DNA of 27,968 bases from Prasinococcaceae sp. CCMP 1430 (taxonomy: Eukaryota > Prasinodermophyta > Palmophyllophyceae > Prasinococcales > Prasinococcaceae). Of this stretch, positions 12,453-21,614 are shown one piece after another; within the stretch, counting starts at the first letter, position 1, and each line of letters starts with the position of its first letter. The stretch spans positions 616,068 to 644,035 of the forward strand of contig RQSC01000032.1 in NCBI GenBank assembly GCA_013416795.1, read 5' to 3'. The translations under genes were made by a program, and so were the position numbers. Under the pieces are notes generated by a model. The model was given only the letters and a program-made list of their open reading frames with translations, was not told the DNA's origin and did not search any database.

Positions 12453-12564
12453 CTTCCGCTCTCGCTCTTGCGCACCGCGCAGGGCCACCCCATGCTCATC
12501 GAGCTCAAGAGCGGCGAGACCTACAACGGCCACCTCGTCGCGTGCGACACGTGGATGAATCTGC
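12453..12564 (+). pseudogene. LSM4: isolated LSM4 exon (Sm1 motif only)
   Basis: After a good acceptor (CTGCAG ending at 12452) the frame reads '[14 protein letters not shown]', '[14 protein letters not shown]', '[10 protein letters not shown]'. This is an almost exact LSM4 N-terminus and Sm1 motif. LSM4 is part of the LSm2-8 ring on U6 snRNA and the LSm1-7 decay complex. Homology stops abruptly at 12564, where 'LREVICTS' is expected. The next bases are GCGGGCGCC repeats with no GT donor at the break. The Sm2 motif and the Gly/Arg tail are absent from the window. The initiator ATG exon was not found either. As it stands this is a fragment: a pseudogene remnant, a misjoin, or an exon whose partner has been lost. 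The fragment's identity is strong; its status is inferred. Confidence 0.72.
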
Positions 12565-12612
12565 ACCGCGGGCGCCGACGCCGGCGCCGGCGCCAAGAGG
12601 AAGAAAGGTCGC

Positions 12613-15600
12613 ATGTGGGGCAAGGCCGGGATGATGGCCAAGCTCGCCGCGCGCGCCAAGCTCACCGCCGAGGCGCAGCAGAGCTCGGCGCTGGAGCAGG
12701 TCCTCGACGTGGCGCGCGGCGCGGCGACGGACGAGTCGCTGGTGGGCGCCACGCGCGCCCACGCCTTCGAGGCCGCCATGGACGCGCGCATGGTCGAGTT
12801 TGAGCGGCGGCGCGACGCCCTCGAGGCGTCGATGCGCGAGCGGCACGCCGAGCAGTACCGCTCGCTGCGGCGCCACTTCGACGACGCGCAGGAGAATCTC
12901 GTGACGGCGTCGCCCGCCGTGGTGGCGCTGCGCCGGCGGCAGGCCGCGCTGGTCTCCCAGAAGAATTACTCGGAGGCCTTCGAGCATCTCAAGGCCATCA
13001 AACGCGCCGAGCGCGACGCTGCGGCGTCGCACAAGGCGGCCCACCAGCGCGAGAACGAATCGGCGCTGGAGAAGCTGCTGGAGCAGCAAAGGTGCGAGCG
13101 AGAGAACTTCGCCGCCAAGGTCAGCCAGGAGCACGAGAACCTCGCCGCATTCAGGAGGGAGAGGCTCGCGCAGCTGGCAGGGGCGGCGGGGGCGCAGGAC
13201 ACGCTGCAAGACATTGCGCGCTACCATGCGCGACAGCAGCAGATGCAGCACATGCAAGGCGGCGGGGCGATCGGGGCTGCGCAGGTGGAGAGCGGGCAGG
13301 AGCAAGGGCAGGGACAGGGACAGCAGCAGCAGCAAGGCGACGAGCATGTCGCTGAGCGGAGCCCGAGCGCGGGCGCGGGCGCGCATGCTGCCCCCGCGCC
13401 CGCCGTCTTCGGCTCAGTGGGGCAACCGTTTGGCCCGCCGTCCTCCGCGAGCGCGTCCGCGGTGTCGGCGATGCTTCGTGGGCAGCAGGCGGCTCGGGCG
13501 CCGGGTGGGCCCGTTGGGAATGCCCCGGCCATTTTGCCCGCGACTCACGCGTCCGCATCGCAGCTGCCCGCCGCTCCGCCGCTGTGGTCGTTCAGCCCCG
13601 CCGCTGGCGCGTCGGCGGCGCCGCCACCTCCACCCGGAGTCGTGTCTGGCGCGATGGCCAGCTGGGCGCGTGGCGAGGCGATGGCCCCCGGCCGATCCCG
13701 CGCTGCGCTGTCGCCTGCACCTCTGGGAGGCACGCGCTCCTTGCCCGCAGCGTGGCAGCCCGACGTGGCGCTGCAGCGCACGCGCGGCCCAGATGCTGCG
13801 CCCATGCAAGCCGTGGCTGGCGCCCTGACCACCGCCGCTCAGCTTCTCAGCGGCGGCGGCCCCGTCGCGCCCGGCCTGGCTGCCAGCGCGTTCATGGGGA
13901 TGGCAGGAGCGTCGAGCAACCTGCCGCGGCAGGGCATCGCGTCGGAGCCACCCATGCCCATCTTCTGGCGAAACGCCGAGGCGGCGGCCAAGGCGGCCCA
14001 CGCAGAAGGCAGCGGCGCGCCGCCCGAGCGGCACTACAAGCTGCGCTTTACGGGTCGTGCCTTCCACGAAGTCGACCACGCGTCTCTCACAGAGGGGCTG
14101 GTGGACACGTTTGGTGCTCTCTTCCGCATTCCGCGCGAAGGAGTGCGCGTTCGCCTCAGTGCGGGGTCCGTGCTTGCATCTGTGCGCCTCAGTGGCGTGC
14201 CCGGCGGCGTCGTCTTTGCGTGCGCGGACGTGCAGGCCGCGCTGGAGGGCTCAGCGGCGTCAGCCGTGGCGGAGCTCGCATCGCTCGGACTTCGGGTCGC
14301 GGAGGTGTACACCGCGCCAGCGCGCACACACCAGCCTGCTAGCGCGCACGCTGGCGCCGCAGATAGCGTGGATGGCGCCGCCGGCACCGCCGGTGGCGCG
14401 CACCTTGGCGGCGGCGCTGCCGCGTCCTCGCCGGATCTGCCCGCGACCACGCCTGCTGTTGCCGGCACTGCCTCGCAGGACGAGCCCGGCGGTGATACCG
14501 GGGGCGCTGGCGACCCCGGCGGCGCTGATGGTGAAGCCGCTCGCGTTGATTCGCCGAGTGCGGATGGGAACGATGCACAGGAAGACGCGCCGCCGGCTGA
14601 CGAGGACGACACTGAAGACGAAGATATTTGGGACGAGGATATGGTGCCCCTCTCCGCTCGGCAGTCGGGCGGAGGCAGCGAAAAGCAGCGGCTCGCTACT
14701 CTCGACCTGGCACGCGTTCAGGCGTTCGTGCAAAGGACAGAACCGAGCAAGGCCGCTCTCGCACGAAAGGAGGCTGCAAAGAAACGATTCGTCGGCGCGA
14801 TCGGCACTACCGCCAAGATGGCCGTCGCCGCGAGGGCATTCGGCGCGGCGAGGGCGGCGGGGAAGTCGAGGCTGGCCAACGAGGCTAGGGAGAGCGCGGG
14901 CACAACTCAGGCGGCGTCGCAGGATGGCAGGGCGGAGGCTCCGGACGCCTCGCGGCCGTCATCCCTTCGCGATAAGTTCAAGGCCCGCGCGAATGATGTG
15001 CGTCAGGGGGCGCGCGTGATGATGGCAATGCGCAGCGCGGTCAACGAGCGCAGCATGGTGGCAGTCGCGCCGAGTGAAACGAGTCCGGGCACCGCCGGAT
15101 CGGACTCGGCGTCGCGCACGAGCACGCCTGGCTCAGACGCGGCGTTGGTGGCCGCCGCCGAGGCGGAAGCGGCTCAGGCGCTCGCCGATGCAGCTGCCGC
15201 CGAGGCGGCTGCGGCGGAAGCCAAGGCGCAGGCAGCCGCGGCGAAGACGAAAGCGCTCGCGCTCGCTGGCGGCGGCTCGCCGCCCGCGTCGTCGACGGAA
15301 ATGGCGGTGGCAGACCGCGGCGCATCCGGCAAAGCGTGGGCTAGAGCGGCCACCAAGATCGGTGCGTTGTCCAAATTCAGCATGGCCGGCAAAATGGCAG
15401 AGCCCCAATCCGACAAGGTGGGAAAGACCAGTATGGATGACGTAGCGAAAGCCAAGGTCCTGGCCAACAAGGCCAAGGCCAAAGCGGCGGCGCTGGCGCC
15501 TTCGAAACCCTTCAGCACGTCCGACATCAGGGTGCTGTTTAGCTACGCGCGCCACAACAAGTACCATCAGCTCAAGGACCTCCTCGAGGCGGGCGCACCG

Positions 15601-15849
15601 GCAGATCCGCGTGACAAGTTCGGCAACACGCCGCTCATCATCGCGTGTCAGAACGGCAATGCGCGCGTGGCGAAGGTGCTCATGCGCCACGGCGCCGACA
15701 TGGACAAGGCAAACAAGCAGGGCAACACGGGCCTGCACTACTGCGTTGCGTACGGCTTCAACGCGCTGGGTGACCTCCTCATTGCCAAGGGCGCCAGCGA
15801 CAAGATCCTCAATAGCCTCGGGTACAATGCATACGAGGGCATCAAGTGA
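12613..15849 (+). CDS. coiled-coil / SEA-like / ankyrin-repeat protein
   Basis: 1078 aa in one exon, no named orthologue recognised. Residues about 50-200 are charged coiled coil ('[18 protein letters not shown]', '[18 protein letters not shown]'). Residues 205-245 are Gln/Gly-rich. A long Pro/Ala-rich disordered stretch follows. Residues about 474-570 form a compact alpha/beta unit ('[18 protein letters not shown]', '[20 protein letters not shown]') of the SEA/ferredoxin-like type that recurs in algal mosaic proteins. An acidic block lies at about 660-677 ([14 protein letters not shown]), then basic and Ala-rich helices. The C-terminus (about 965-1078) has three ankyrin repeats ('[20 protein letters not shown]', '[17 protein letters not shown]'). 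It is probably a scaffold. The frame is open back to 12559 and reads KRKKGR just before the chosen ATG, so the true start could lie upstream or in a missing exon; the LSM4 fragment ends right there. Confidence 0.78.
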
Positions 15850-15993
15850 GGCATTTGCCAATCCAGTAAACGACTCCTCACACGTTCTGCACGCGCACCG
15901 CGTGTCGCCGCGCCTCCTCGGCGACGGGCGGCGTCGAGCGCCACAGCGCCGGCGGTGTGCATTGCGCAGCCACGCGGCCGACGCCCCGCTGTG

Positions 15994-18186
15994 ATGGGCC
16001 TCGACAGTGCGCCGCCCGGGGAGGGCGGTCGTGGGCGCGGGGGCCGCGGGCGCGGAGGTGCCGCCGCCGACGGCATGGACTTTGACGTCGAGCGCGAGGC
16101 GTCGCTCGCCGCGGCCGAGGCGTTCGGCGGCGCGGTCGCCAGCGGCCACTGCGCGCTGGTGGGCCGGCCAAACGCCGGCAAGAGCTCGCTGCTCAACGCC
16201 GCCCTCGGGGCCAAGCTCTCAATCGTCACGCACAAGGCGCAGACGACGCGAAACTCGGTGCTCGGCATCTACGACGACGACGACGCGCAGGTCGTCTTCG
16301 TCGACACGCCGGGCGTGCTGCGCCGCGAGGCGGACCTTCTGGACTCGCGCATGAACAGCTACGTGTCGCGCGCTCTGCGCGACGCCGACGTCGCGGTGTG
16401 CATCGTCGACGCAGCCGACGCAGCCGGCGTCGACTTCCGCGACGCCGCCGGCATTCGGCGCCATCGCAACGACCGCGGCGGGCGCGGAGGGCGCGGGGGG
16501 CGCGGAGGCCGCGGAGGCCGCGGGCGCAGAGGCCGCGGGCGCGGGAGCCGAGCTGATGTTGCCTCCGCTGCGAATGTCACCGCTGCCTCGACCGTGACAC
16601 GCGCAGCCGCGACTGCAAGCCCTGCTCCGCCTGCCGTGCATGATTGGAGCGGTCTGCCCGCCTCCACTGATGACATCGTCGCCGCGCTCGCTGCGCTCGG
16701 CGATGCCGCAAGGGACGCGTCTGCGGCTCCTGTCGATCTCCCGGGCGTGCTGCAGCTTCCCGCGCCTGGTACCGTGCGCCCCCCTGGCACGCGCGCCGAG
16801 CTCATTCGGAGGGGCTTTCACACGGAAAAGGCAATCGCCGCGGCCAACGATGGCGAGCTGGCCGGCAGCGCAGATGCCCGCGCCAAAGCCGACGAGCACC
16901 AAAGCGGCCGTTCCGCGCGCGAGCCGCTGCGCGTGGTTCTCCGCGCTGCAGGCCACACCTTCCGCGCGCAGCAGGCTTCCCCTTCTGAGGGCCCGGCACG
17001 CCCAGTCCAGGAGGCGGTATATCGCGGGGCGCTCGCGTGGCTCGAGCAGCGCGGGCGCGCGCACCTGCGCGGCGATGAGCCGTGCGTACGCCTGCCGCCC
17101 CCGCAGCTACCGGCGTGGCCCGCGCCTGCTGCGGTCTCACCATGGGCCGGAGTCGGCAACGCGCAAATCCTGCTCCTGGACTGGGACGACGGTGTGTTGC
17201 GCGGTCTTCCTGCTGGTGGCAGCGTAGCCGCCGGCGGCGGCGATTCCGCACTGCGGTCGTGGCTCGCCGGGTTGCCGCCCGGCGCGCCAATCGCGCTCGA
17301 TGCCGAGTGGCGCTGGGACCACGCGCTGCGAACCCACCGGGGCGCCGCGCTGCTGCAACTCGCACCGCTCGACGAGCGGCTAGCACCACCGATCCTCATC
17401 CACATACGCCAGTGGACGTGCGAGGGAAGGCCACTCAGGCCGTTCCCGTCCGACCTGGTCGAAGCGCTGCTTGCGAGGCAGTGCGTCGTGTGGGGCGCCG
17501 GGAAGCCAGGGACGGGCGATAGGAAACACGTTGCGCGCACACTCGGCGTAGACGAAGACGCGGGGCGACGAGCCAGCGGCACCGACGACCTCACAAGGCA
17601 GCTCGCAGGTCTGACCACGGACGACAGTGCGGGTGCTCCATCTCGGGACCCCTTTGGCTGGCTCGAGGCGCAGGAACTCGTACACGTGCGATACCCAGCG
17701 CTCAAGGGGCCGCAGGGTGGGGGCACCGGCATCGGACTGGCGGCCGCCGCGCGCATGTTGTTGGGCGTGGACCCGCCGAAAGACGCCTCCATGCGCAAAC
17801 GCGACTGGTCAAAGCAGCTGGACGAGAGCGCCGCATACTACGCTGCGCTCGACGCGGTTCTCATTGGTGAGGATGGCATGCGGTGTGCGCCAGGGAGCGC
17901 GCCGCTCAGGCGCTCGCGCGCGCTCGCAGCGAGTGCCTATGAAAGCGGCTGCTGGCTAACCCGGCGCTCTCGCCTGCACCCGCGCTCTCGGAACCACCGT
18001 TGCAGGGCGCATCTTGAGCGCCATGCTCCGCGACAAGGAGCACGTGCCCCTCCGCGGAACGCCCTGGCCCGCGCAGGCGTGAGGCGGCGTAAATTCCCCG
18101 AAGCTCACGTGGACGGGTGGGTGCGCGCGCGGCAGCTCACCGGTGCGAACGCGGCGGCGGCGCAGCACGTGTACCATGTACAATAA
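15994..18186 (+). CDS. Era-type GTPase N-terminus fused to a DEDDy 3'-5' exonuclease
   Basis: One uninterrupted frame, up to 730 aa. Residues 57-64 are a P-loop (GRPNAGKS), followed by the Era signature '[20 protein letters not shown]' with the G2 Thr, and G3 'FVDTPG'. The Era fold then stops near residue 150 ('[16 protein letters not shown]'), before the NKxD guanine-specificity motif and the KH domain. An Arg/Gly-rich tract (about 159-190) follows, then a region of unknown fold. Next is a 3'-5' exonuclease of the WRN/RNase D class: Asp436-x-Glu438 ('[10 protein letters not shown]'), Asp509 in the ExoII position ('[12 protein letters not shown]'), and Tyr616...Asp620 ('YYAALDA'). All catalytic acids are present. 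The ATG at 15994 is the first in frame; a GTG at 15955 is an alternative. After 'LDAVLIG' the sequence turns Arg-rich. A GTGAGG donor-like site there (about 17868) and an AATAAA overlapping the stop suggest the true C-terminus is spliced or shorter. Confidence 0.7.
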
Positions 18187-20999: not shown

Positions 21000-21030
<31 letters not shown>

Positions 21031-21614
21031 CGCATGTGTGTGTGTGCGCATGTGTGTGTGCGTGTGCGCATGTGTGTGTGCGCATGTGTGTGTGTGTGTG
21101 TACGTGCGCGTGTGTGTGTCTGCGTGTGCGTATGCGTATGCATGTGCGTGCATGTGTGTGTGTGTGTGTGTACGCGTGTGCGTGTGTCTACGTGTGTGTT
21201 TTGAAGTCTGTGCACGTCCGTGCGTGTGTGTACGCGCGCGCGCGTGTGCGCGTGCGAGCGCGCTGACAACCCGATGCGGCGCCCCCCGCCCCCCCGGCGC
21301 TCCTGACCTTCAGGGCGGACGCCGACGGCGCCACCGAGGCGCTCATCGGCGGCCTGGGCGCCGCGCGCTGGGAGGACTTCCAGCGCGAGGCGCACGCGCT
21401 CAAGCTGCGCGCGGACGAGGCGGAGGCGAGGGCGGAGGCGTCGCCGCCGCCCCCCTCCGCCGCGCGGCCATCCTCGCGCGGCCGGTCGCGCGCGGCGCTC
21501 CGCTCGCTCCCCTTGCCCCCCTCGCTCCCTTCGCCGGCCCGCTCGGCGCTGCCGCGTCCCTCCAGGCGCGCGTCGTCTTCCCCATCGTTCTCTTTTTCCA
21601 TCTCCTCCTTGTAG
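20862..21614 (+). CDS. two possible exons around a GT-microsatellite intron, product unknown
   Basis: A reading of 'HAAYADAFGDAAPTAAAFADAF' ends at CAG followed by GTGCGTGAG (donor at 20960). The next exon opens after CTTCAG at 21313. Splicing in phase 2 gives 'FADAFRADADGATEALIGGL' and continues 'GAARWEDFQREAHALKLRAD', an Ala/Glu-rich helical segment with strong GC3 bias. The frame then turns Ser/Pro-rich and ends in TAG at 21612. That TAG also closes an excellent polypyrimidine-AG acceptor (TTCTCTTTTTCCATCTCCTCCTTGTAG), so the coding part may really end or splice earlier. No start codon is fixed. It may be a separate small gene or the 5' exons of the IBtk-like gene, since it shares that gene's reading frame. 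Low certainty. Confidence 0.3.
20978..21240 (+). repeat. long imperfect GT/GC dinucleotide microsatellite
   Basis: About 260 bp of alternating purine-pyrimidine sequence, mostly GT with GC and AT steps, inside the proposed intron 20960-21313. It produces long Val/Cys or His/Thr ORFs in several frames that are not genes. Alternating purine-pyrimidine DNA of this length is prone to Z-DNA and to slippage. Confidence 0.92.

What the first reader, a model, noticed from the sequence alone, without database searches (positions are those of the whole stretch)
15994..18186. In-frame chimera of Era GTPase N-terminus and DEDDy exonuclease
A P-loop, Era-specific G2/G3 region and truncated G domain run through an Arg/Gly tract into a 3'-5' exonuclease with all four acidic residues and the Tyr. 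Era normally acts in ribosome assembly with a KH domain, absent here. Tying a partial GTPase to an RNase D/WRN-type nuclease would be a new architecture. However, the G domain lacks NKxD, and the junction is GC-rich simple sequence, so an artefact must be excluded.
Basis: partly seen in the sequence, partly recalled or inferred. Interest (0 to 1): 0.75.

Follow-up and report, generated by a model that had tools for sequence, protein, structure and literature searches.

The report
Half Era gene joined to exonuclease
In a GC-rich, probably green-algal, genome the first half of the gene for the ribosome-assembly GTPase Era runs in frame into a DEDDy-type exonuclease gene, most likely because sequence was lost at a GC-rich tract in a gappy assembly and not because the alga makes a new fused protein.

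Summary
One frame without stops carries an Era-type G domain up to strand β4 (window 16141-16419), an RGG tract (16474-16551) and a DEDDy exonuclease domain (17296-17859 and on). Corrections: an intron very likely lies at 17867-18005, so the protein ends at TGA 18080-18082, not at 18186. The exonuclease is recognised by motifs and in-genome paralogues, not by Pfam.

The interpretation as a new architecture is weak. The G domain stops before G4, G5 and the KH domain. A bacterial Era N-half used as query finds this locus (E 9e-20), but the C-half of the same protein finds nothing in the assembly. No other Era was found, although plastid Era is indispensable in plants. The assembly's many gaps sit at GC-rich edges: 15 of 16 have a flank of at least 82% GC, against 14% of random positions. 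The junction, with no N, reaches 92% GC. No in-frame ATG lies between the junction and the exonuclease's first catalytic motif, so its own start is missing too.

Best reading: two ordinary genes, a chloroplast-type Era and a DEDDy exonuclease, joined by loss of sequence at the tract, most likely in assembly (0.62). Reads or a cDNA would settle it.

The parts
15994..16140 (+). first ATG and N-terminal region with a short RGG tract ([12 protein letters not shown]); not like a plastid transit peptide, while the ATG-less frame just upstream (15862-15993) is Arg/Ser/Ala-rich
16141..16419 (+). N-terminal part of an Era-type G domain (G1, G2 and G3; ends after strand 4)
   Evidence: NF000908 E 2.7e-34, TIGR00436 1.9e-21, PDB Era chains about 1e-17; motif coordinates
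16420..16473 (+). short stretch without detected homology in which the Era match ends (break point region)
16474..16551 (+). RGG tract, up to 92% GC over 60 bases; tandem 9-nt repeat; junction
16552..17130 (+). Ala/Pro-rich region with coding periodicity but no known domain and no in-frame ATG
17131..17866 (+). DEDDy 3'-5' exonuclease-like domain, first exon part (LDAEW 17296-17310; GTGDRKHV 17509-17532; YYAALDAV 17836-17859)
   Evidence: 27.7 bits against 7.2 for the best of 2000 shuffles; motifs
17867..18005 (+). probable intron (GTGAGG ... CTAAC ... TTGCAG)
   Evidence: sequence; spliced translation
18006..18082 (+). last exon of the exonuclease, stop TGA 18080-18082

Best explanation
The locus is a false join of two ordinary neighbouring genes: the 5' half of a chloroplast-type Era gene and most of a DEDDy exonuclease gene. 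The assembly lost the sequence between them (the Era C-half, the intergenic stretch and the exonuclease's start) at the extremely GC-rich RGG tract. The in-frame continuity is then chance: one frame in three, helped by the scarcity of stop codons in 70% GC DNA. In the cell, Era would be a complete GTPase-KH protein acting in organelle small-subunit assembly, and the exonuclease a separate RNA or DNA 3'-5' exonuclease. Shown: the truncated Era, the absence of its other half from the assembled bases, the exonuclease motifs, and the GC-rich location of gaps in this assembly. Inferred: that sequence was lost at this very place, and that it was lost in assembly and not in the genome.
For: The Era match ends at model position 94 of 291. 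A bacterial Era N-half (L112) finds this locus at E 9e-20; the C-half of the same protein finds nothing at E up to 10. The Era and KH_2 family searches find no other Era and no Era KH domain. Four other bacterial-type GTPases (MnmE, Der, Obg, HflX) are whole or nearly so in single frames, so this genome does not generally break such genes. YbeY is present, so organelle rRNA maturation is expected. Plants typically have two Era proteins, and loss of the chloroplast one depletes plastid ribosomes (PMC10582724). In a sample of own-genome loci, 15 of 16 gaps touch a flank of at least 82% GC against 14% of random positions (P about 2e-12), with roughly one gap per 8 kb, many of them a single N. The junction reaches 92% GC. 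No in-frame ATG lies between 16351 and 17755, so the exonuclease too lacks its own start. Loss of GC-rich 5' exons is a documented fault of earlier, largely short-read assemblies (PMC9516821).
Against: No N marks the junction, so a silent mis-closure has to be assumed. The longest exact repeat shared by the two RGG tracts is only 14 bases, so a simple k-mer collapse is not demonstrated. The frame is open across the join. The sequencing method of G000 is unknown; a short-read origin is inferred from the gaps. N runs or withheld stretches may hide a separate Era, so absence is not proven. The drop in third-position GC at the junction is not diagnostic, since neighbouring genes vary as much.
Confidence: 0.62

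Rival explanations
1. The deletion is real: in this strain, recombination near the RGG tracts removed the Era C-half and the exonuclease's start, leaving a fused reading frame. The Era part is then a dead remnant serving as an N-terminal tail, and the exonuclease may still work; a whole Era lies in an unassembled part of the genome.
For: Open frame without N; RGG tracts lie on both sides of the Era fragment (16024-16055 and 16498-16544, 75-84% alike); coding periodicity continues downstream.
Against: The Era fragment keeps intact G1, G2 and G3 and 56% identity to its best bacterial match, which does not look like a decaying remnant; no second Era is found.
Confidence: 0.2
2. A true, functional fusion protein in which an Era-type half G domain and an RGG tract bring a DEDDy exonuclease to organelle rRNA, comparable to the known YbeY-Era and RNase III-Era fusions.
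For: Conserved G1-G3, complete DEDDy motifs; Era is linked to nucleases, since YbeY interacts with it (PMC5101352) and rare YbeY-Era and RNase III-Era fusions exist (PMC10582724).
Against: No G4 or G5, so guanine cannot be read in the usual way, and part of the central sheet is missing; no KH domain, the part that binds the 16S rRNA 3' end. The reported Era fusions add domains to Era. No evident transit peptide at the first ATG.
Confidence: 0.06
3. Two overlapping or unusually spliced genes: the exonuclease begins in an exon that was not recognised, and Era continues through introns into exons not recognised here.
For: An intron very likely exists in this gene (17867-18005); the upstream ATG-less frame looks like a transit peptide, so 5' exons may be unannotated.
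Against: No Era C-half in any frame of the assembled genome, although exon-by-exon matches should be found; no strong splice donor from 16380 to 16770.
Confidence: 0.1

Closest known systems
Era GTPase, chloroplast type (WSL6/ERA1 of plants)
   Same: G1-G3 region, TTR and DTPG motifs, NF000908 as best family; the best bacterial matches are mostly Bacteroidota, in line with the Bacteroidetes-Chlorobi affinity reported for chloroplast Era (PMC10582724)
   Different: ends after strand 4; no G4, G5 or KH domain
DEDDy 3'-5' exonucleases (EXD2/WRN/RNase D-like, Pfam PF01612)
   Same: DxE, D and YxxxD motifs in order, aligning with paralogues on C71, C38 and C123 of the same genome
   Different: too divergent for the Pfam model; extra N-terminal RGG and Ala/Pro-rich region
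YbeY-Era and RNase III-Era fusions of bacteria (PMC10582724)
   Same: an Era reading frame joined to a ribonuclease frame
   Different: as described there, domains are added to Era; here half of Era is gone and the nuclease is of another family

Membership tests
Era GTPase | G1, G2 and G3 motifs of Era type | tested here: met
   [20 protein letters not shown]000908 118.8 bits over positions 3-94
Era GTPase | G4 NKxD and G5 SA motifs | tested here: not met
   no NKxD-like motif in the spliced protein, and the one SA-type match is far outside the G domain; the match ends at model position 94
Era GTPase | C-terminal KH domain | tested here: not met
   no KH match in the protein and no Era KH elsewhere in G000
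Era GTPase | score above the curated cut-off for the whole protein | tested here: not met
   118.8 against 237 (NF000908) and 76.6 against 116.25 (TIGR00436)
DEDDy exonuclease | four acidic residues and Tyr in motifs I, II and III, in order | tested here: met
   LDAEW, GTGD, YAALD; alignment with three paralogues
DEDDy exonuclease | match to Pfam PF01612 | tested here: not met
   no match even at E up to 10; profile of in-genome paralogues 27.7 bits
DEDDy exonuclease | RNase H-like fold | tested here: inconclusive
   single-sequence model with pLDDT 37, not usable
DEDDy exonuclease | 3'-5' exonuclease activity | not testable with these tools
   needs purified protein

The most novel reading that the evidence does not exclude
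An alga really makes a protein in which half an Era G domain and an RGG tract are fused to a DEDDy exonuclease, as a nuclease addressed to organelle rRNA.
Probability: 0.06. Interest if true: 0.6.

Novelty: not a real feature. Interest (0 to 1): 0.14.

Why it matters
If real, it would be an Era-nuclease fusion of a new kind and a use of half a G domain. As it stands, it shows how very GC-rich coding tracts in this kind of genome can produce convincing in-frame chimeras: any fusion found at such a tract here should be checked against reads first.

Tried and rejected
The GC3 drop at the junction was rejected as evidence because the neighbouring ankyrin gene varies from 0.66 to 0.97 within itself. 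AlphaFold2 on the exonuclease alone gave pLDDT 37. A scan of viral contigs found no relative. PHROGs gave nothing. The RGG tract's best DNA match elsewhere is an RGG tail of a DEAD-box helicase on C73, a shared low-complexity coding motif. Eukaryote collections with related algae are not on hand, so the fusion could not be sought in relatives.

Full report
What is there. The plus-strand frame 15850-18186 has no stop, and from the first ATG at 15994 it gives 730 residues. Residues 50-142 are an Era-type G domain: NF000908 'GTPase Era' scores 118.8 bits (E 2.7e-34), the next family, Der, 66.6 bits, and solved Era chains match at about 1e-17. The match stops at model position 94 of 291, after strand β4 by my knowledge of the Era fold. 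G1, G2 and G3 are present; NKxD and the KH domain are not.

After an Arg/Gly tract (16474-16551) and an Ala/Pro-rich stretch comes a domain that no Pfam or PHROGs model recognises. It nevertheless has the motifs of DEDDy exonucleases in order: LDAEW, GTGD, YAALD. A profile of three DEDDy paralogues from the same genome gives it 27.7 bits, while the best of 2000 shuffles gets 7.2. One correction applies: GTGAGG at 17867, CTAAC near 17955 and TTGCAG ending at 18005 mark a probable intron. Splicing continues the last helix as ...[28 protein letters not shown]... and stops at 18080-18082.

Where the rest of Era is. The genome (24.5 Mb, 145 contigs) was searched with two Era families, KH_2, a KH motif pattern and a bacterial Era split in two. 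The N-half of L112 finds the window at E 9e-20; the C-half finds nothing at E up to 10. Other hits of the Era models are other GTPases, by my reading of their frames: MnmE on C58, Obg on C2, HflX on C60, EngB on C111, Der on C3, and relatives of NOG1, DRG and LSG1. The KH_2 search gives an rps3 of organelle type and KH_1-like repeats, no Era KH. YbeY is present. N runs can hide sequence, so this shows absence from the assembled bases only.

Why an artefact is likelier than a fusion. Era is deeply conserved; plants usually have one for mitochondria and one for chloroplasts, and loss of the chloroplast one depletes plastid ribosomes (PMC10582724). The same review says that chloroplast Era resembles that of the Bacteroidetes-Chlorobi group; most of the 80 best bacterial matches here are Bacteroidota, so the fragment is probably chloroplast-type Era (inference; database composition may bias this). 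It also calls Era fusions extremely rare and names YbeY and RNase III among the partners; a DEDDy exonuclease is not named. The assembly is gapped: in the own-genome sample there is about one gap per 8 kb, often a single N, and 15 of 16 measurable gaps have a flank of at least 82% GC against 14% of random positions (P about 2e-12). The junction reaches 92% GC in 60 bases. The exonuclease has no in-frame ATG between 16351 and 17755, so its own start is missing as well, as expected if the sequence between two neighbouring genes was lost. False loss of GC-rich 5' exons is known from earlier vertebrate assemblies (PMC9516821).

What is not shown. The junction itself contains no N, the two RGG tracts share at most 14 exact bases, and the sequencing method of this assembly is unknown. 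A real deletion in the genome would look the same. I therefore put 0.62 on a false join, 0.20 on a real but degenerate fusion, 0.10 on misread gene structure and 0.06 on a functional fusion. GC3 was tried as a discriminator and discarded.

Organism. GC about 70%, 24.5 Mb and an rps3 that looks like green plastid type suggest a green alga close to Prasinoderma (25.3 Mb, 69.8% GC, PMC7455551), but its published assembly has 22 chromosomes, so this is a different assembly or species. This is a guess and nothing rests on it.

Noticed in passing
15846-15993: The ankyrin-repeat ORF (12559-15849) and the Era ORF lie in the same frame, separated by a single TGA that overlaps a donor-like GTGAGG; the ATG-less stretch after it is Arg/Ser/Ala-rich, like a transit peptide.
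   Followed up: no
25676: A single-N gap between 85% GC and 67% GC sequence, of the kind found throughout this assembly.
   Followed up: partly
L121 (G000:C136:344000-353900): A 10-kb stretch of about 45% GC with an rps3 that looks of plastid type inside a 477-kb contig: organelle DNA insertion, an organelle contig, or a mis-join.
   Followed up: partly
L136 (G000:C72:300000-309999): Ten kilobases that read entirely N; with parts of C52, C2 and C120 this shows that a sizeable part of G000 is gap or withheld.
   Followed up: no
L134 (G000:C109:145225-145560): YbeY-like domain (E 6.9e-30) in a 558-aa open frame, longer than YbeY alone.
   Followed up: no
21000-21190: A long CA/TG-type simple repeat that reads open in several frames.
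   Followed up: no
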